From a virus: a DNA stretch of 64,000 nucleotides. Below the pieces are notes generated by a model, which did not search any database, had not been told where the DNA came from, and was given only the letters and a program-made list of their open reading frames with translations. Positions within the stretch are counted from its first letter, which is position 1; every line of letters starts with the position of its first letter. The translations under genes and the position numbers were made by a program. The stretch covers positions 25,856 through 89,855 of IMG/VR virus record IMGVR_UViG_3300010401_000001; one strand, written 5' to 3'. Of the stretch, positions 4,442 to 27,653 are shown piece after piece.

Positions 4442-4882
4442 ATGACCCCGTCAACTCAAGTGAGCCGCTTCCTCGACACCGCCGCCGCCGCGGTCTACCT
4501 CGGGTTCCGCACCCGGGCAGGGATCCGCTCGCTGGTCTACTCGGGCGAGCTCGTACCCGACGGTCGCGGCTACCGAGGCGGCTACGTGTTCCTACCCGAG
4601 ACGCTTGACGCGTGGACCCGCTCCCGCATGGAGTCGATGCATGGACGACGAGGGCATCAAGCAGCTCGGCAAGAACCTGTGGGCGGTCCGCGTCAAGCGG
4701 ATCAGCGCGGCGACGGGCAAGACGGTGAACCGCAAGGCGACGGTGAGCGGGAGCAAGGCCGACGCGCGGCGCAAGCGCGACGAGCTTCGCGCGGAGCTCG
4801 CCTCAACGCAGGCGGCGCGACCGCGGACGCAGCTCAGGTCATACGCGACATCGTGGCTCGGGCGCAGAGCCGACGACCCTGA
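4442..4882 (+). CDS. Excisionase-like HTH protein overlapping integrase
   Basis: Residues 8-60 (SRFLDTAAAAVYLGFRTRAG, then IRSLVYSGELVPDGRGYRGG and YVFLPETLDAW) have the winged HTH layout of MerR/Xis-type excisionases. The frame stays open to 4882, so its last 80 codons overlap the integrase in another frame and read as low-complexity Arg/Gly/Gln sequence. The functional part is probably the first 66 residues. It would direct excision together with the integrase. The overlap could also mean that an original stop codon was lost. Confidence 0.6.
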   Translation: MTPSTQVSRFLDTAAAAVYLGFRTRAGIRSLVYSGELVPDGRGYRGGYVFLPETLDAWTRSRMESMHGRRGHQAARQEPVGGPRQADQRGDGQDGEPQGDGEREQGRRAAQARRASRGARLNAGGATADAAQVIRDIVARAQSRRP

Positions 4883-5747
4883 GACGAAGGCGACCACGGT
4901 CCGCAAGTATGGCTACGGGCTCCAGCACATCCTACCCGTGCTCGGCGACCTGTACCTGGACGCGATCGCGCCGGCGGACATCGAGCGCTACGTCGCGTTC
5001 CGCATGCGCCAGGTCGGCCTCAAGGGCGGCAACACCGTGCTCAACGAGCTGCGGCTGCTGCGCACGCTCGCGCATGATGCGCACCGCAACGGCTACTGCG
5101 ACCGGGTCTGGACCGACGGCGTGCGCCAGCCCAGAGTCCGCGAGTACGACGAGACCAGGCCGAACCTGCTGACCGGCGAGCAGTGCGACCGGCTCCTCGC
5201 CGCGATCCCGACGCAGTGGCGCGCGCTGGTTCTGTTCCTGGTCACCACCGGCCTGCGGTTCGGCGAGGCGTCGGCGCTGCACTGGGAGGACGTCTCGGGC
5301 GGGCAGGCGACGATCCGGTACACCAACGACCGTGGCAGGCTGACGACCGTCAAGACGCACAAGAGCCTGCGCCGCGTGCCGATGCTGCCCGTGGTGATGG
5401 AGCTGCTCACCGTCAAGTCGAGCGGGCTGGTGTTCCCGTCGCGGAAAGGGACGCTGCACAAAGGGTCGCCGCTGAAGAAGGTGCTCGACGCGGCGTGCGC
5501 GGCGGTGTTCGGGCCGGGCGGGCTGCGCGTTACGGCGCACGGGATGCGCAGGACGTTCAATAACGAGGGCCGCTTGGTTGCGAGCACGCTGGTGCTGCAG
5601 TCGATCACCGGCCACGCCACGGACGCGATGACCGCGCACTACTCGATGGTCGGCGCCGAGGAGAAGGCGGCGGTGAGTCGGGCGGTCGCGGAGCGGGTCG
5701 GGGCGGTGGAAGGCGCGGCGAGGAAGGGGCCAGAGCAGGTGAACTGA
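4641..5747 (+). CDS. int: Tyrosine recombinase (phage integrase)
   Basis: Begins MDDEGIKQLGKNLWAVRVKR, a typical DNA arm-binding N-terminus, followed by the core-binding domain and the catalytic domain. Visible catalytic residues are the Arg in TTGLRFGEASALHWEDV, the Lys in KTHKSLRRVPM, the HGMRR box, the His of SITGHATDAMTAHYS and the nucleophile Tyr in the same stretch. 368 residues is the usual length. I start at ATG 4641 rather than the in-frame ATG 4605, which lies inside the HTH gene. It would catalyse integration and excision; the candidate attP lies 3 kb downstream. Confidence 0.95.
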   Translation: MDDEGIKQLGKNLWAVRVKRISAATGKTVNRKATVSGSKADARRKRDELRAELASTQAARPRTQLRSYATSWLGRRADDPETKATTVRKYGYGLQHILPVLGDLYLDAIAPADIERYVAFRMRQVGLKGGNTVLNELRLLRTLAHDAHRNGYCDRVWTDGVRQPRVREYDETRPNLLTGEQCDRLLAAIPTQWRALVLFLVTTGLRFGEASALHWEDVSGGQATIRYTNDRGRLTTVKTHKSLRRVPMLPVVMELLTVKSSGLVFPSRKGTLHKGSPLKKVLDAACAAVFGPGGLRVTAHGMRRTFNNEGRLVASTLVLQSITGHATDAMTAHYSMVGAEEKAAVSRAVAERVGAVEGAARKGPEQVN

Positions 5748-8633: not shown

Positions 8634-8809
8634 CAAGGTATCATAATCTTTGAGGAGCCACCCAGATTTGAACTGGGGAATGGTGGTTTTGCAGACCACT
8701 ATATTACTGAACTAAGTACTGAACAACACAACCTAACCTATGAACATCACGCAAGCACGGGAACGACAGGGCAACATCGGAATGGGCCGGATGTGTCCTT
8801 GAGGTGTCC
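8583..8809. other. Candidate phage attachment site (attP)
   Basis: A core resembling the 3' half of a tRNA-Cys (8653-8699) lies between two pairs of octamers. On the left are AGGTGTCC (8583-8590) and ATGTGTCC (8594-8601); on the right ATGTGTCC (8791-8798) and AGGTGTCC (8802-8809). Each pair is spaced by 11 bp, one helical turn. Paired arm-type sites around a tRNA-derived core are the hallmark of tyrosine-integrase attP regions. The left pair lies in the coding frame of a doubtful 27-aa gene. Confidence 0.5.
8653..8699 (-). other. tRNA-Cys(GCA) 3' half, no 5' acceptor strand
   Basis: On the minus strand this reads as a 5-bp anticodon stem with loop CTGCAAA (anticodon GCA), a five-base variable loop, a perfect T arm around TTCAAAT and the 3' acceptor strand TGGCTCC. 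The matching 5' acceptor GGAGCCA and a folding D arm are absent upstream. It is therefore not a working tRNA; identity from the anticodon stem to the 3' end is what phages keep to rebuild a host tRNA on integration. A degenerate phage tRNA is the alternative. Confidence 0.6.
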
Positions 8810-11483: not shown

Positions 11484-11709
11484 AGGTCGACCTCGACGAC
11501 CTCGAGCACAAGGCTCGATTGCAGAACCACGGCGTGCTGTGCGCTGAGCCGCCTTGTTGTTGCTGCGCGCCAGTAACTATTGCGCTGATCGCTCGCATCC
11601 GCGAGCTCGAGGCCGCTGCGCGCGAGGTCGCAGATGCTCCTCACCGACATGCTCAGGCCGGCCGCATCGGAATCATGCGGTCGGTGCTCGACAAAGGCGT
11701 GGTGTTGCC

Positions 11710-11713
<4 letters not shown>
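11480..11713 (+). CDS. Small Cys-rich protein, 77 aa, coupled to the kinase gene
   Basis: GTG start. It carries CAEPPCCCCAP, four adjacent or near-adjacent cysteines, followed by a helix (IALIARIRELEAAAREVADA). Its TGA overlaps the GTG of the kinase gene, which puts the kinase under the same translation chain as the phage genes. Confidence 0.55.
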
Positions 11714-15117
<3,404 letters not shown>

Positions 15118-21422: not shown

Positions 21423-21681
21423 GGCCCGCTGATCGTACAGCTGTCGGGAGCGGCGCGGTTCCCTATTGCGTAGGTGAGAGGAATCACGCACCGTCGCACG
21501 CCGCGCCGCCCTCCCGACCTTTGCATCGTGGCATTACGGCTCGGGGTGTCCACTCCGGAAGATCTGTCTCACCGCGCGCATTGCGTGAGGTCACAGATTT
21601 TGTTGTAGTGCGCTACGGCGCTATGTCGCCTTACAACATGACGGTCTTCCCTGGCCGTCCTCACAAGAAAGGTATCGATAG

Positions 21682-22635
21682 ATGAGGAATCAGTATTTTG
21701 CGTTGTTGATGTGCTGTGCCGTGACGTCTGCGTGCGAGCTATCGGACCGCCCGGACGATCGGTCGTCGCAGGCGCAAGCGGTCCTGGCCGCGCCGACCAC
21801 GATCGCGCCCACGAGCGGGTATGGTGACCCCGGTTCCGTCACGACGGTCGACGCCGCGGGCAACGTGAACTGGGTCGGCGGCAACTGGCACGTCCCGCTT
21901 CCGGTGTCCGTCGGCGACGTGATCGGTTCGGTCTCGGCGATCGTCCGTGACAACGGCGCAGCGAACGGCCACACCGCGGACGGCAACGTCATCGTGATGC
22001 AGCTGATCTCGCACACGTCGTTAGGCGACAACGCCCGGGCTACGATCATCAGTTCGGGCAGCGGGTCGCAGCAGACGTTGACGCTCGCTCCGAGCGGAGG
22101 ATACCGCGTGCAGAGCGGTGAGGATATGCTCGTGATGTTAGTTGGCTTCCGGGCCCTCGTGCCGTCAATGGCCGGCCTCGTCACCGTGTCACCGCTCGCA
22201 CCGAGTGGCACAGCGACAATCGGGACGTTAATCCTGTCATCGGGTGGCGTAGCCCTGAAGCCGGCGGGCGTTACATTCGTCGGGGATGCAGCAGGTTCGG
22301 TGTCCTGGACTGGAGGCGCGTGGAGCGTCCAGATCCCGTGCAACTTCGGTGACACGATCGATCAGCTTACGACCATCGTAATAGATGGTATCAGTAGCCC
22401 GATCACTGCGAGCGTTGTGGTGGTAGGTCAGAGCGGAGGTCCAGTAGCCCCTGGAGGCGTTCCTCCGTTGAGAACGATCGCGACCCTCACGACGGCTGGG
22501 GACGGTAAGTCCCATCCAGTCGTATTCACGCCGGGTTATGTCGTGCAACCCGGTGAAGGCATAATAGAAACATTCACCCCTACCGCGCCATCTATACAGT
22601 CTTCTGTAGGCCAAATACTGATGACCAAGAACTAG
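21682..22635 (+). CDS. Lipoprotein with two tandem beta-rich domains
   Basis: MRNQYFALLMCCAVTSACEL gives a type II signal peptide with lipobox V-T-S-A-C (Cys18), so the mature protein is lipid-anchored. The rest is beta-rich and shows an internal duplication: GDPGSVTTVDAAGNVNWVGG with NWHVPLPVSVGDVIGSV, and later FVGDAAGSVSWTGGAWSVQI with PCNFGDTIDQLTTIVIDG. It lies alone on the plus strand between lysis and tail fibre genes with its own ribosome site. Lysogenic-conversion or superinfection-exclusion lipoproteins are found in such positions; that function is inference. Confidence 0.75.
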   Translation: MRNQYFALLMCCAVTSACELSDRPDDRSSQAQAVLAAPTTIAPTSGYGDPGSVTTVDAAGNVNWVGGNWHVPLPVSVGDVIGSVSAIVRDNGAANGHTADGNVIVMQLISHTSLGDNARATIISSGSGSQQTLTLAPSGGYRVQSGEDMLVMLVGFRALVPSMAGLVTVSPLAPSGTATIGTLILSSGGVALKPAGVTFVGDAAGSVSWTGGAWSVQIPCNFGDTIDQLTTIVIDGISSPITASVVVVGQSGGPVAPGGVPPLRTIATLTTAGDGKSHPVVFTPGYVVQPGEGIIETFTPTAPSIQSSVGQILMTKN

Positions 22636-22640
22636 ATCGA

Positions 22641-23678
22641 TCAGTTATTCTTTGCGATTAGCCTCCATAGGCTTGAGGTACCGTCATATAAGAACGTAAA
22701 GGCAACGTGGGTAATCATTGTCAGCGAAGCTAGTGAAGGGTTAAATAAGCGGTTAGCTGCCAAGCTATTAGAGTCGTTGTGCGTAAACGTGACCGTATCC
22801 CCGGTCTCGTTGTAAATGATTAGAATCCTCCCGTCGGATGGCGCGCTGGGTGCTGCAATACCGGTCACTACTGGTGCACCGCCGGAAGCATTTGTGAACC
22901 GAATGATCACAGATGTCGAAAGTCCTGTAGGGTTGTAATTATTATTGTTTCCGGTGGATAGCGCGGCCGGAGATATACTTGTGTACGATAGAGCACCGCC
23001 TACACCACCGCTAAATGTAGCGCGACCGCTAACGGCAAGTGTACCGCTGACGATTTCATTTCCTCCGACGGTCAGGTTTCGCGTTACCGTAGCATCGCTA
23101 CTCCGTTTTGTAGTTGCTTGGTGATTCAGCGTCTGCGTACCAGTGCCATTACTCGTGATGTCAATGGCAATTCCAGCGAATGCATTTGAATCCGATGATA
23201 TCGCCAACTTTAAGTTGTTCGCGTCGACCTTGATTACCCAGTAGTCCGTACCGGCTGTCAGCCCTCCGGGCAGCGCTCCGCCGCTATTCGAGGTCCGCAC
23301 GGGACCGTCGCCGGTCTCGAGACCGTGCGCCGTCTTCGTCAGCTGGTCGGTCGTACTGTCAGCCGTGAAGGTGAAGTCGGTGAATGCGAGGAGCTGCCCG
23401 CCGATCGTGATCGCCCCAGCTACTACGGCCGCTGCATCGCAGGTCAGCGTGTTTGCGACCTCCAGCGTACCCGCGATGCTGTGGTTGCCCGATAGCGCGC
23501 CATCGTTTAGGTACTGAGCCCATAGGAAGTTCTCGTGAAATAACGAGTTGACCCGGCCAGCGCTCGCTGGCGTTCCGGATTGGAAGCCTCCGTCGCGCTC
23601 TCCACTGGTGGGTACGACAAGATTCGCCCCTCCGACATCGGCCCAGCGCACGTTCGCAATTGTCGGCTTAGTGCTCAT
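22641..23678 (-). CDS. Tail fibre / receptor-binding-type protein
   Basis: Starts MSTKPTIANVRWADVGGANL at 23678; the longer frame lies inside the next gene. 345 residues, beta-rich with low-complexity GTLEVANTLTCDAAAVVAGA-type repeats, an inserted domain (HGLETGDGPVRTSNSGGALP, DYWVIKVDANNLKLAISSDS) and a globular end (IIYNETGDTVTFTHND). It lies downstream of the DUF2612 gene where fibres are encoded in myoviruses. The inserted domain also occurs in the tail sheath gene. Confidence 0.7.
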   Translation of the reverse strand: MSTKPTIANVRWADVGGANLVVPTSGERDGGFQSGTPASAGRVNSLFHENFLWAQYLNDGALSGNHSIAGTLEVANTLTCDAAAVVAGAITIGGQLLAFTDFTFTADSTTDQLTKTAHGLETGDGPVRTSNSGGALPGGLTAGTDYWVIKVDANNLKLAISSDSNAFAGIAIDITSNGTGTQTLNHQATTKRSSDATVTRNLTVGGNEIVSGTLAVSGRATFSGGVGGALSYTSISPAALSTGNNNNYNPTGLSTSVIIRFTNASGGAPVVTGIAAPSAPSDGRILIIYNETGDTVTFTHNDSNSLAANRLFNPSLASLTMITHVAFTFLYDGTSSLWRLIAKNN

Positions 23679-23682
23679 ATCC

Positions 23683-24393
23683 TCAAAGCTCCTGATCTGC
23701 GGCGTTGAACCACACCGCGGTGTCCCAGACGCCCGCCGTGTCCCAGTACAACGTTCTCGCCGGGTCTTGCCCGGTCCACTCGACGATGCGGCGCACACCG
23801 TCGCTGGTCGCGCGCAGCACGAGCTCGACGAGCACGGCCGCGACCGCATCGGACAGCGCGATGCCGTCGACACGCAGCACGGATGCCGCGACGCCGGTGA
23901 TCACCGTGGTGATGGTGCCGGCGTCTCCGATGACGAGCCGGGCGACCTTCTGCACGTCGTTGACCGATCCGTTGCTCTTGTTCGCCGAGATCTGCGCGCG
24001 CACGTATCGGCGGTAGATCTCGTCATCGCTCACGCCATCGCGCGCGCGGCCCACGATGACCCCGATCACGTCGAGCTGCACCCCGACCGCCGTGTCCACG
24101 TTGCGCTGCGTCAGCACGGCGAGCATCGCCGCCGCGAGGTCGTTGGCCGGCGCGAGTAGCGCCGTGATCGCCTTCTCGGTGTTCGTCAGGTGCGCGGGGT
24201 CGGTGCTCCGGTACATGCTCGGCAGCCGCGACAGGGCCCGCGCCACGTAGTCGCGCGGGGGTAGCGTGCTCGTGATGGCCACGGCCGCGGTCGGCAACAC
24301 CACCACCGGGGCGCTGTCGGCCGGCGCCGCCCAGCGCAGGGCCGCGGCCGAGCCGGCGATCGCGGGCGCGCTCGGCTGTTGCTCCTCGATCAC
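23683..24393 (-). CDS. DUF2612/gpI-like baseplate protein
   Basis: 236 residues; LPSMYRSTDPAHLTNTEKAI followed by DVIGVIVGRARDGVSDDEIY and RRYVRAQISANKSNG is characteristic of the DUF2612 (P2 gpI-related) tail proteins that link baseplate wedge and fibre. ATGA overlap with gpJ upstream. Confidence 0.75.
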   Translation of the reverse strand: MIEEQQPSAPAIAGSAAALRWAAPADSAPVVVLPTAAVAITSTLPPRDYVARALSRLPSMYRSTDPAHLTNTEKAITALLAPANDLAAAMLAVLTQRNVDTAVGVQLDVIGVIVGRARDGVSDDEIYRRYVRAQISANKSNGSVNDVQKVARLVIGDAGTITTVITGVAASVLRVDGIALSDAVAAVLVELVLRATSDGVRRIVEWTGQDPARTLYWDTAGVWDTAVWFNAADQEL

Positions 24394-25763
24394 GGGACCC
24401 CGGTGCTCGTCGCCACGGCCACGCGGCTTGTGTCGTACACGGCACGCTCGAACAACGAGATGGGGATCGTCGTCGACAACGACGGCGATGCCGTGGTGCC
24501 GATCAGCGGCAGCGCGACGTCGAGCACGCCGGAAACCGTGAAGACCTGCGCCGATACCCGCGCCGCCACCACGTTGGTGCCGTCATCGAGCGCGTTGCCG
24601 CTCGTGGCGATCGCCGCGGCGATCTGCGCTGCGCCGTCGACCGGAAACGCGCTCGGATCCACTACGACGGTTACCGAGACCCAGACCGGGATCTCCGTCA
24701 CCCGCGAGAATGCCATGGTCTGCGGCGTTCCCTCGCTGTCAAGCGCCGTGCCGATCACCGTCCCGAACGTCCTGATCCCGTCCGCGACGTTGTCGAGCAG
24801 CGCGTCCCAGATGTCCTGGTCCGCGCCGCCTTTCACCATCGCCAGCACGGAGTGCGGCGGGATCCCGTTCGCGTCGGTGCCGTCGGTGACGTTGCTGAAC
24901 ACGGTGCAGCTCGTGACCGGCGTCGGGCCGTCGGTCAGCCCGAGCAGCGCCGCGCGGATCGCTCCCTTCGTGGACGTGCCGGGCTGCTCGAGCTCGATCT
25001 CGCGTAGGGCGCGCAGCTGGGCATTGGTCATCACCGGCGAGCCGACCGCGGCGTCCAGGATGTTGATGACCCCCGACCACCCGCCGACCGGTGTGTCGAT
25101 GCTGACGATGTCGCCGCTCACCGCGACGATCGGTCCGGACACCGTAGCGCGCGTCAGCACGTCGACGAAGCCGGTCCCGGCTCCGAGGAAGCGCCACGTC
25201 GCGCCGCCGTCGGTGATGTCCACGCCGCGCGTCGTACCGCTCGGCCCCCCGCTCGGCGCCGACGGCCCGCCGACGGTGCAGAGGTAGATGTTGCCGGCGT
25301 TGGTGCGCTTATCACCGGCCACGTAGACCGTCGAGCCGAGCCAGGCCGTGGCCGCGGCGATGACCTGGTCGCCGGCGTCCTGGGTCGTGAACTGCTGCCC
25401 GGTGCTCGAGGTCGACGCCAGGGAGCCGGCCGTGATTGGCGTGGTCGGCGTGCCGGTGAGCGTCAGCGTGACGCTGCTGAACGTCGCCGCGCGGCGCTTC
25501 GTGCCGGTCAGCGCGCAGATCGCATCGAGCGCGGCGTCGAGCGCCTTGTTCGGGTCCTGGCTCGAGACGATCGCCTCGAGGAGCTCGTTCAACAGCGCGA
25601 ACAGCTCCGCCACGATGCCGATCTGCTGGCCGTCCGGGGAGCGGTCCGAGACGTCCATCGAAGCCCCGAAGAAGCCCCGCCACTTCGCGTTGATCTGGTC
25701 GCGGACGTCTGCGAGCGTGGCGATCTGCAGTCCCTGGGTAGTCAGCGCCGGTATGGGCACCAC
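24390..25763 (-). CDS. Baseplate J-like protein
   Basis: 457 residues with the typical layout: N-terminal DVRDQINAKWRGFFGASMDV, GQQIGIVAELFALLNELLEA, a beta-rich variable centre, then LRALREIELEQPGTSTKGAI and RAALLGLTDGPT as in gpJ proteins of P2-like and related baseplates. It forms the outer wedge of the contractile baseplate. Confidence 0.85.
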   Translation of the reverse strand: MVPIPALTTQGLQIATLADVRDQINAKWRGFFGASMDVSDRSPDGQQIGIVAELFALLNELLEAIVSSQDPNKALDAALDAICALTGTKRRAATFSSVTLTLTGTPTTPITAGSLASTSSTGQQFTTQDAGDQVIAAATAWLGSTVYVAGDKRTNAGNIYLCTVGGPSAPSGGPSGTTRGVDITDGGATWRFLGAGTGFVDVLTRATVSGPIVAVSGDIVSIDTPVGGWSGVINILDAAVGSPVMTNAQLRALREIELEQPGTSTKGAIRAALLGLTDGPTPVTSCTVFSNVTDGTDANGIPPHSVLAMVKGGADQDIWDALLDNVADGIRTFGTVIGTALDSEGTPQTMAFSRVTEIPVWVSVTVVVDPSAFPVDGAAQIAAAIATSGNALDDGTNVVAARVSAQVFTVSGVLDVALPLIGTTASPSLSTTIPISLFERAVYDTSRVAVATSTGVP

Positions 25764-26092: not shown

Positions 26093-26437
26093 GTGTTCGC
26101 GGTAGGCGACCAGGTGGTTCTCGTCTCGAGCCGGCCCCGAGCCGACGGCCTTCAGCCCGGCACAAAAGGCACCGTGGTATCGTGGTCAATCCTGGCCGGC
26201 GCACAACACCAGGAGGTGCGCGTGCGGCGCAAGCGCGGCCAGGTTGCCGCGTTCGCCCCGTGCGAGCTCGCGCCAGCTGCCGCGCCAGCGACCAAGTCGA
26301 TGTCGGACTACCGCGCGATGTCGCGCGAGGAGTTCAGGGCGCGGTTGCGCGAGCGCCGCGTGGTCGTGCATGTGCTGTCCGATGCAGAAGCCGCTCTCGC
26401 CGAGCGCAGCGCCCGGCGGATCCAGGCACGCCGATAG
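26093..26437 (+). CDS. Small cargo protein with SH3/KOW-like start, 114 aa
   Basis: From GTG 26093: FAVGDQVVLVSSRPRADGLQ, PGTKGTVVSWSI and EVRVRRKRGQVAAFAPCELA form a small beta-barrel-like domain; the C-terminus is helical and Arg-rich. The frame is open upstream and a CTG at 26051 overlaps the previous stop (CTGA) in the style of this genome; using it would add the motif CSRCAAGH. The start is therefore uncertain. Confidence 0.55.
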   Translation: MFAVGDQVVLVSSRPRADGLQPGTKGTVVSWSILAGAQHQEVRVRRKRGQVAAFAPCELAPAAAPATKSMSDYRAMSREEFRARLRERRVVVHVLSDAEAALAERSARRIQARR

Positions 26438-26680
26438 CCACCCTTGCGGGCCCCTCTTACCGCCCGGACATCGCTGCAGCGCGCCGGGTTGACGGTCTCG
26501 TAGGCCAGGTTCGATCGGCAGCCCACACGCTCTGGGTGGACCGTCTTGCTGGCGAGGGCTACGACGTTGGCCTTGCGGCCCAATATGGCGTACCCCGCCG
26601 CGTCGGGGTCAGAGAGGCTCATGAAGCTTGCAAGTCGGCATTGAACCGAGGTGGTGCGGCCACCGAGTCATGAGTATCCG
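26438..26680. other. Intergenic region upstream (in plus sense) of tRNA
   Basis: No supported gene. A minus-strand frame (start 26622) runs through it with MSLSDPDAAGYAILGRKANV but continues into the opposite strand of the gene at 26093, so I do not call it. Confidence 0.4.
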
Positions 26681-26754
26681 TTGCGCGGGCAGGATTTGAA
26701 CCTGCGACCTCCGGGTTATGAGCCCGGTGAGCTACCTGGCTGCTCCACCGCACG
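26681..26754 (-). tRNA. Initiator tRNA-fMet (CAU)
   Basis: 74 nt on the minus strand fold as a full cloverleaf: acceptor CGTGCGG/CCGCGCA, D stem GAGC/GCTC, anticodon arm CCGGG-CTCATAA-CCCGG, T arm GCAGG-TTCAAAT-CCTGC, discriminator A. The initiator hallmarks are present: a C1-A72 mismatch, three G-C pairs next to the anticodon loop, and A11-U24 in the D stem. CCA is not encoded. It lies 30 bp downstream of a nucleotidyltransferase gene on the same strand and inside the baseplate gene block, so it is phage-borne. Confidence 0.92.
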
Positions 26755-26784: not shown

Positions 26785-27246
26785 TCAAGGATCGCCTCGC
26801 CCGGCTCTCAGCATCGATAACGGCACAGCATCGAGCCTCAGGCGCGGGCGATCGTCCTGGATCGGCAGGCCGGTCCCGTCGCTGAATAGCGCGCTCTGAA
26901 ACTGGAAGTCGATCCGCCGCGCTACCTTCGCGCCGCGCCGCCAGCGCCGGGTCATGCGTCTGCTCTGCTTGAGCTCCTCGCGGCACTTCGCGAACGCGGC
27001 CGGCGACCAGTCCGAGCCGATACCGTCCCAGTCCGGACCGAACCAGAGATCGAGATCCTCGCGCTCAACCAGCACACGGATGTCGAGGTCGCCGGGCTCA
27101 TCGGCAGTCAGGTACGAGCCGACCAGGTAGACCGGGCCGCCGTACGCGAAGGCGATGTGGTTGGCCTGGCCACGAAACGCGGCCGCGAACGACTCGGCGC
27201 GCTCACGCGGCGTCGGAGCTGCCGGCGAAGCGTCGGTACCGATCAT
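26785..27246 (-). CDS. Nucleotidyltransferase-like protein
   Basis: 153 residues with VYLVGSYLTADEPGDLDIRV at 39-58, the GS-x(n)-D-x-D signature of the polymerase-beta-type nucleotidyltransferase fold, plus a later Asp/Phe block (RRIDFQFQSALF) that could give the third carboxylate. It overlaps the gp25 gene upstream and is followed by the tRNA-fMet on the same strand. Family members modify tRNAs, proteins or drugs; action on the adjacent CCA-less tRNA is a tempting but untested idea. Confidence 0.7.
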   Translation of the reverse strand: MIGTDASPAAPTPRERAESFAAAFRGQANHIAFAYGGPVYLVGSYLTADEPGDLDIRVLVEREDLDLWFGPDWDGIGSDWSPAAFAKCREELKQSRRMTRRWRRGAKVARRIDFQFQSALFSDGTGLPIQDDRPRLRLDAVPLSMLRAGRGDP

Positions 27247-27653
27247 GTTCCGGGCACGATCTGCACCTGGCCGTCGCCGAACCTGGTGATGATCGTCGCG
27301 CTCACGGTCAGGTTGCGTGTCGTGCCGTCAAAGCTTGACTTGAACTCCGCGACGTCGAGCACGCCGGGCACCGCGAGCGCCTCGCCGCGCAGGACCCGGG
27401 CGATCTTCGCGGCGTCGTAGGGCTGCCCGAGGATGGCGTCCTGCTCGGTAACCACGCCGTCCTCGGTCTCGAGCCACGGCGTGCCCAGGTCGCGATTGAG
27501 GAACCACTCGTCGCGCCACAGGAGCCACGCCGTGCGCACCAAGATGAGCACGGCCTCGAGGCCGCTGGCCTTGCGCAGCGGCACGATGAGGTCGTTGTTC
27601 TGGTCGCGCGCGAACACGACCGGATCGGTTGATAGCGCGGTGGTCGCGGGCAT
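27243..27653 (-). CDS. gp25/gpW-like baseplate wedge protein
   Basis: 136 residues. LWRDEWFLNRDLGTPWLETE, then ILGQPYDAAKIARVLRGEAL and VLDVAEFKSSFDGTTRNLTV are the pattern of lysozyme-like-fold wedge proteins (phage DUF2634/gp25 group). It sits between spike and gpJ as expected in contractile tails. Confidence 0.75.
   Translation of the reverse strand: MPATTALSTDPVVFARDQNNDLIVPLRKASGLEAVLILVRTAWLLWRDEWFLNRDLGTPWLETEDGVVTEQDAILGQPYDAAKIARVLRGEALAVPGVLDVAEFKSSFDGTTRNLTVSATIITRFGDGQVQIVPGT

What the first reader, a model, noticed from the sequence alone, without database searches (positions are those of the whole stretch)
26681..26754. Phage-encoded initiator tRNA-fMet
The tRNA has the C1-A72 mismatch, three G-C pairs flanking the anticodon loop and A11-U24, all hallmarks of bacterial initiator tRNA. 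Phage tRNA genes are common, but they are almost always elongators. This one sits among baseplate genes, so it is unlikely to be host DNA.
Basis: partly seen in the sequence, partly recalled or inferred. Interest (0 to 1): 0.85.

Follow-up and report, generated by a model that had tools for sequence, protein, structure and literature searches.

The report
Phage initiator tRNA, switched in relative
A temperate virus of soil bacteria really does carry its own copy of the tRNA that starts every protein; other phages are known to do this, but in a close relative the same gene has been rebuilt into what looks like an ordinary valine tRNA, so it may show a start tRNA changing its job in nature.

Summary
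The minus-strand gene at 26680-26754 is a well-formed bacterial initiator tRNA-fMet(CAU): C1xA72, A11-U24, GGG/CCC, C32, A37, A73, no encoded CCA. A covariance model of 20 initiators scores it 96.3 bits; a host-class initiator scores 103.2, the best other host tRNA 68. The record is an 89.9-kb temperate myovirus. A 49-bp attP identical to a tRNA-Cys 3' half points to a soil deltaproteobacterial host. The fMet gene is not the attachment site; it lies in a cassette inserted between two baseplate-wedge genes that adjoin in distant relatives.

The rarity claim is too strong: 292 of 50,697 phage records have fMet-like matches, and several isolates (I3, Myrna, CcrSC, D3, phiKX1) carry initiator-type tRNAs. 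The gene alone is a new member of a known kind.

Relatives gave the more unusual result. In a 92-93% identical phage the same gene has anticodon UAC, a restored C1-G72 pair, U3-A70 and G73: an initiator apparently turned valine-type elongator. The phage's second tRNA keeps its body but carries UGC, UAU or UAC in three relatives. Whether any of these is charged and used is untested.

The parts
26680..26754 (-). Initiator tRNA-fMet(CAU) gene, no encoded CCA
   Evidence: ARAGORN, Rfam 62.3 bits, initiator model 96.3 bits
25764..27242 (-). Inserted cassette between the phrog_120 and phrog_6 baseplate-wedge genes; holds the 153-aa gene, the tRNA and uncertain small frames
   Evidence: The two baseplate genes are 30-60 bases apart in L127-L129
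26785..27246 (-). 153-aa protein gene ending 30 bases before the tRNA; nucleotidyltransferase-like motif GS-x8-DLD ... DF, unproven
   Evidence: Third-position bias 17 of 30 changes versus G002; motif shared with a 35% identical protein in G180; no significant family or fold match
26308..26622 (-). Possible small gene after the tRNA, 88% identical over 91 aa in G002; coding strand uncertain
   Evidence: tblastn, codon-position counts not decisive
27243..27653 (-). Baseplate wedge gene (phrog_120), upstream neighbour
   Evidence: PHROG E 3.7e-24
24390..25763 (-). Baseplate wedge gene (phrog_6), downstream neighbour
   Evidence: PHROG E 1.4e-43
4605..5747 (+). Tyrosine integrase: the phage is temperate
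   Evidence: Pfam PF00589 E 9e-13
8652..8700 (-). Likely attP: 49 bases identical to the 3' half of a host tRNA-Cys(GCA)

Best explanation
A phage-owned initiator tRNA-fMet gene, most simply captured from a host of the deltaproteobacterial class the phage infects, carried in a small cassette inserted between two baseplate-wedge genes of a temperate myovirus. Most likely it is transcribed with the late structural operon, cut out by host RNase P and 3' processing enzymes, given its CCA by the host CCA-adding enzyme, charged by host MetRS, formylated, and used to top up or replace the host initiator tRNA while structural proteins are made. Shown: identity, ownership, position, sense orientation. 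Inferred: transcription, processing, charging, formylation, use. In the close relative G002 the same gene has been changed at the sites that set its identity (anticodon CAU to UAC, C1xA72 to C1-G72, U3.G70 to U3-A70, A73 to G73, C32 to G32, A37 to G37) with the fold kept, so the demand on this gene differs between relatives: initiator here, apparently valine-type elongator there.
For: Cloverleaf and all initiator hallmarks; initiator model 96.3 bits versus at most 68 for other host tRNAs; nested in host-class fMet variation, nearest 5 of 75 different; identical in the 99% identical record G001; sense strand in a structural operon, absent from the same gene junction in distant relatives; initiator-type tRNAs also present in unrelated phages; in G002 the 1-72 and 3-70 pairs become Watson-Crick, as expected of a still folded tRNA with a new role.
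Against: U3.G70 replaces the near-invariant C3-G70, a pair in the stem that the formyltransferase reads, so formylation could be weak. No promoter-like site nearby, and no expression data. No host-infection data. The gain of function by an extra initiator gene is not shown for any phage in the papers read. G002 shows that the initiator function is dispensable in this lineage.
Confidence: 0.6

Rival explanations
1. Counter-defence: the phage tRNAs replace host tRNAs cut or blocked by host tRNA-targeting toxins (VapC, HEPN nucleases, AtaT-like acetylases), and the anticodon-loop changes between relatives are escape changes. The 153-aa protein upstream could be an MNT-like antitoxin that silences a HEPN nuclease, making the cassette a two-part shield.
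For: Changes concentrate in anticodons at two loci, 4 of 15 on 6 of 148 bases, p = 0.0009; loop positions 32 and 37 also change in G002; published mutational pattern for phage tRNAs (PMC10264068); nucleotidyltransferase-like motif next door.
Against: In the window gene itself the anticodon loop is identical to the host's, so it would be cut like the host's. The motif protein has no significant match to any MNT or nucleotidyltransferase family. Host defence content was not examined.
Confidence: 0.2
2. The tRNA is a processing signal: its cloverleaf lets RNase P and RNase Z cut the polycistronic late mRNA between baseplate genes, and the anticodon is free to drift.
For: Fold conserved while the anticodon changes; sense orientation inside an operon. 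In G002 an ATG follows the tRNA 3' end directly.
Against: Would not explain why the window and G001 genes keep every initiator hallmark, or why G002 changes fall on 1-72, 73 and the anticodon.
Confidence: 0.07
3. Attachment site or tRNA-dependent lysogeny: the gene marks the phage's integration site or rescues a host tRNA broken by integration.
For: The phage has an integrase, and initiator genes in the host class carry partial second copies that look like island integration.
Against: The likely attP is a 49-bp tRNA-Cys 3' half near the integrase, long enough to rebuild tRNA-Cys; tRNA-dependent lysogeny has a core of about 10 bp and a phage tRNA of the same isotype (PMC10865867). Neither phage tRNA is Cys.
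Confidence: 0.03
4. Passing cargo: a captured host tRNA without benefit, kept for a while and decaying; the G002 form is an early stage of drift.
For: U3.G70 in both phage copies, G73 and missing G20 in G002, a 96-base deletion right after the tRNA in G002.
Against: The fold is intact in all copies and two G002 changes improve pairing; the second tRNA is 72 of 73 identical between records whose flanks are 48-59% identical.
Confidence: 0.1

Closest known systems
Host-class (Deltaproteobacteria MAG class) tRNA-fMet genes, e.g. L161 in G066 and L162 in G126
   Same: C1xA72, GGG/CCC, A11-U24, same T-arm, no encoded CCA; 5 of 75 bases different
   Different: Phage copy has U3.G70, A26 and lies in a phage structural operon
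Initiator-type tRNA genes of isolated phages: Mycobacterium I3 and Myrna, Caulobacter CcrSC, Aeromonas AP1, Komagataeibacter phiKX1, Janthinobacterium Donnerlittchen, Pseudomonas D3
   Same: CAU anticodon, unpaired 1-72 and A11-U24; score 76-102 bits with the initiator model
   Different: Other hosts and other genome places; in the phages read none was checked for a switched relative
Single tRNA genes of Sinorhizobium phiLM21-like prophages (PMC12429752)
   Same: Temperate phages with tRNA-Met, tRNA-fMet or, in one case, tRNA-Val as the only tRNA
   Different: There the paper does not state that the Val gene derives from the fMet gene, and its anticodon is CAC
Anticodon switching of tRNA genes (PMC3868979; Met/Val exchange described in PMC9976931)
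   Same: Anticodon changes with the body kept; Met and Val identities are separated largely by the anticodon
   Different: Here it crosses from initiator to elongator type and includes the 1-72 pair, in a phage

Membership tests
Bacterial initiator tRNA-fMet (window gene) | No Watson-Crick pair at 1-72 | tested here: met
   C1xA72
Bacterial initiator tRNA-fMet (window gene) | Three G-C pairs 29-41, 30-40, 31-39 | tested here: met
   GGG/CCC
Bacterial initiator tRNA-fMet (window gene) | A11-U24 (R11-Y24) | tested here: met
Bacterial initiator tRNA-fMet (window gene) | CAU anticodon for MetRS | tested here: met
Bacterial initiator tRNA-fMet (window gene) | C3-G70 in the acceptor stem (near-invariant) | tested here: not met
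   U3.G70; 112 of 117 viral initiators have C3-G70. Usual, not a strict requirement for the class
Bacterial initiator tRNA-fMet (window gene) | Charged with Met, formylated, used at start codons | not testable with these tools
   Needs biochemistry
Bacterial initiator tRNA-fMet (G002 gene) | No pair at 1-72 and CAU anticodon | tested here: not met
   C1-G72 and UAC
Elongator tRNA-Val(UAC) (G002 gene) | A35, C36, G45 and a regular acceptor helix | tested here: met
   determinants from PMC9976931
Elongator tRNA-Val(UAC) (G002 gene) | A73 and G20 | tested here: not met
   G73 and A20; so it is filed as valine-type by anticodon only
tRNA-dependent lysogeny | attB in a host tRNA that is not rebuilt, with a phage tRNA of the same isotype | tested here: not met
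   49-bp core in tRNA-Cys; phage tRNAs are fMet and Ala-type
Minimal nucleotidyltransferase (153-aa neighbour) | GS ... DxD ... D motif | tested here: met
   VGSYLTADEPGDLDIRV ... RRIDFQFQ, shared with the G180 protein; read by eye
Minimal nucleotidyltransferase (153-aa neighbour) | Nucleotidyltransferase fold and family-level match | tested here: inconclusive
   Pfam DUF6932 E 0.2 only, model pLDDT 42, Foldseek E above 1 although several of its hits are MNT proteins

The most novel reading that the evidence does not exclude
In this phage lineage tRNA genes are reassigned by changes at identity sites while the body is kept: a captured initiator tRNA has been turned into a valine-type elongator in one close relative, and a second tRNA body carries Ala, Ile or Val anticodons in three relatives. 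The same scaffold serves different tasks, driven by host tRNA-targeting defence or host range and not by codon demand.
Probability: 0.35. Interest if true: 0.75.

Novelty: new variant of a known kind. Interest (0 to 1): 0.5.

Why it matters
What phage tRNAs do is still debated (codon supply, escape from defence, lysogeny). An initiator tRNA cannot be explained by elongation codon usage, and two close phages that differ by an apparent initiator-to-elongator conversion at one locus give a direct test. At the one exact pattern scanned, it is the only initiator body with an anticodon not ending in U found in IMG/VR, and it resembles in nature the Met/Val anticodon exchange used in the laboratory to work out tRNA identity.

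Tried and rejected
Elongator Met or Ile2 tRNA: rejected by hallmarks and model score. Host DNA in the window: rejected by collinearity with G002 across the record, including the junction of its ends. Attachment site or tRNA-dependent lysogeny: rejected. Codon supply: phage and host-candidate use of GCA, GUA and AUA are close, so no support. Host source of the second tRNA: one weak match in 96 class genomes. Recombination with a host tRNA-Val as source of the G002 change: G32 and G37 in its loop argue against it, but this was not tested systematically. The 153-aa neighbour as a CCA-adding or MNT enzyme: not shown. Wasted: one pattern scan with a wrong spacer length. Searches for more close relatives with the capsid protein, the 153-aa protein and two tRNA patterns brought only the records of G001, G002 and G155. 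A sharper grouping of changed sites was chosen after seeing the data and is not used.

Full report
What was checked. ARAGORN and Rfam both find one tRNA in the window, at 26680-26754 on the minus strand, anticodon CAU. A covariance model built from 20 initiator tRNAs gives it 96.3 bits; in a host-class genome the initiator gets 103.2 and the best other tRNA 68. Part of the conservation in that model comes from how its members were chosen (by an initiator pattern), but the gap to other tRNAs is large. The gene does not encode CCA; neither do the host-class initiator genes read here, and some Myxococcales are reported not to template CCA (PMC5143459).

Where it lies. The window is part of an 89,855-base virus record. 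PHROG matches give a contractile-tail phage: sheath, tape measure, baseplate hub and wedge, neck, capsid, protease, portal, terminase. A relative, G002, is collinear over most of the record and runs across its ends, so the record is probably close to a complete, circularly permuted genome. A tyrosine integrase lies at 4605-5747. About 2.9 kb away, at 8652-8700, 49 bases are identical to the 3' half of a tRNA-Cys gene; a 30-base part of it matches only two of 84,980 genomes, both soil Deltaproteobacteria MAGs. That is the likely attP and a pointer to the host. A kinase gene with WD40 repeats fits such a host but is weak evidence.

Insertion. In distant relatives L127, L128 and L129 the phrog_120 gene is followed within 30-60 bases by the phrog_6 gene. 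In the window phage about 1.5 kb lies between them: a 153-aa gene, the tRNA and one or two uncertain small frames. The tRNA is therefore cargo in the baseplate operon, in the sense direction, with no promoter-like or terminator-like site nearby. Co-transcription is inferred.

Origin. Of 144 genomes of the host class searched, 109 have a match; the nearest copies differ at 5 of 75 bases and share C1xA72. The phage gene falls within the range of that class, so capture from such a host is the simplest origin. None of 84,980 genomes matches a 26-base pattern of its 5' part, so the capture is not recent or the donor is unsampled.

The switched relative. Record G001 (99% identical) has the same tRNA. 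Record G002 (91-93% identical here) has, at the same place, a tRNA that ARAGORN calls Val(UAC). The two tRNAs differ at ten sites: 20, 26, 28, 32, 34, 36, 37, 70, 72, 73. Both have U3, which none of the 117 viral and 30 host-class initiators tabulated has, so together with the shared flanks they most likely descend from one phage gene, and the host copies make the initiator state ancestral. In G002 the 1-72 and 3-70 pairs are Watson-Crick, the anticodon is UAC, and the initiator-type C32 and A37 are gone; GGG/CCC and A11-U24 remain. It scores 79.2 bits with the initiator model, above every other host tRNA but well below initiators of its kind. Absence of the 1-72 pair is a main determinant of formylation (PMC4611024), and Met and Val identities are separated largely by the anticodon (PMC9976931). 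The changes are those expected of a move from initiator to valine-type elongator. Two valine determinants, A73 and G20, are missing, so charging with valine is a prediction only. A scan of IMG/VR for initiator bodies whose anticodon does not end in U found only G002; that is one exact pattern, and records very near the window may be left out of such scans.

The second tRNA. Outside the window, at 22898-22970 of the record, lies a tRNA-Ala(UGC). G002 has the same body with UAU and record G155 with UAC. Against G155 the only difference in 73 bases is position 35, although the flanks are only 48-59% identical. The body has C3-G70 and not G3.U70, so the Ala label taken from the anticodon is doubtful (identity set in PMC9976931). 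Taking both loci, 4 of 15 changes fall on the 6 anticodon bases, p = 0.0009; the hypothesis was framed after seeing the first locus. Codon use gives no motive: AUA is 2-4% of isoleucine codons in phage and host candidate alike.

What is known. Phage initiator tRNAs are not new. A search of 50,697 phage records gives 292 with fMet-like stretches, though some are host fragments (for example the Acinetobacter contig with secG and rimP) or 39-base 3' parts that could be attP sites (Arthrobacter). Initiator-type genes were read in I3, Myrna, CcrSC, AP1, phiKX1, D3, Donnerlittchen and an uncultured myovirus. Sinorhizobium prophages carry tRNA-Met, tRNA-fMet or tRNA-Val as their single tRNA (PMC12429752), a parallel worth following. 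Escape from anticodon nucleases by loop changes is a published idea for phage tRNAs (PMC10264068).

Function. The window gene most likely supplies initiator tRNA during late gene expression, as a top-up or as a replacement when the host's is attacked. The first is the plainer reading; the second is helped by the loop changes in relatives and by a motif in the neighbouring 153-aa protein that resembles a minimal nucleotidyltransferase (GS...DLD...D, shared with a 35% identical protein next to an amidase-like gene in G180). That reading is not established: no significant family or structure match was obtained.

Limits. Each locus is known from three records, and the relatives are metagenome contigs. 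There are no expression, charging or infection data. The host is inferred from one attP. The gene's own U3.G70 wobble leaves open how well it is formylated.

Noticed in passing
Record G000 22898-22970 (+), outside the window (L002 1501-1573): Second tRNA of the phage, anticodon UGC but with C3-G70 instead of the alanine pair G3.U70; same body with UAU in G002 and UAC in G155.
   Followed up: yes
window 8652-8700 (-): 49 bases identical to the 3' half of tRNA-Cys(GCA) of two soil Deltaproteobacteria MAGs: likely attP.
   Followed up: yes
window 11554-15117 (+): 1187-aa frame with a Ser/Thr protein kinase domain and WD40 repeats, unusual cargo for a phage.
   Followed up: no
window 26785-27246 (-): 153-aa protein with a nucleotidyltransferase-like motif; distant homologue next to an amidase-like gene in bacterial genome G180 (L210).
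   Followed up: partly
G002, at window position 26583-26678: 96-base deletion directly after the tRNA; in G002 an ATG follows the tRNA 3' end at once.
   Followed up: partly
L138 (record G008, 21638-21712): Another initiator-like tRNA in a distant relative, with C1xU72 and GCG/CGC in place of GGG/CCC.
   Followed up: no
L196 (phage D3) and L198 (Donnerlittchen): Initiator-type phage tRNAs with C33 instead of U33 in the anticodon loop.
   Followed up: no
Genomes G126, G072, G122: Complete tRNA-fMet gene plus a 43-44 base 3' copy 12-77 kb away on the same contig, as left by islands that integrate into this gene.
   Followed up: no
L149 (record G005, 2221-2295 and 2406-2479): Two identical tRNA-Val(AAC) genes close together, plus a tRNA-Arg(CCG), in another relative.
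   Followed up: no
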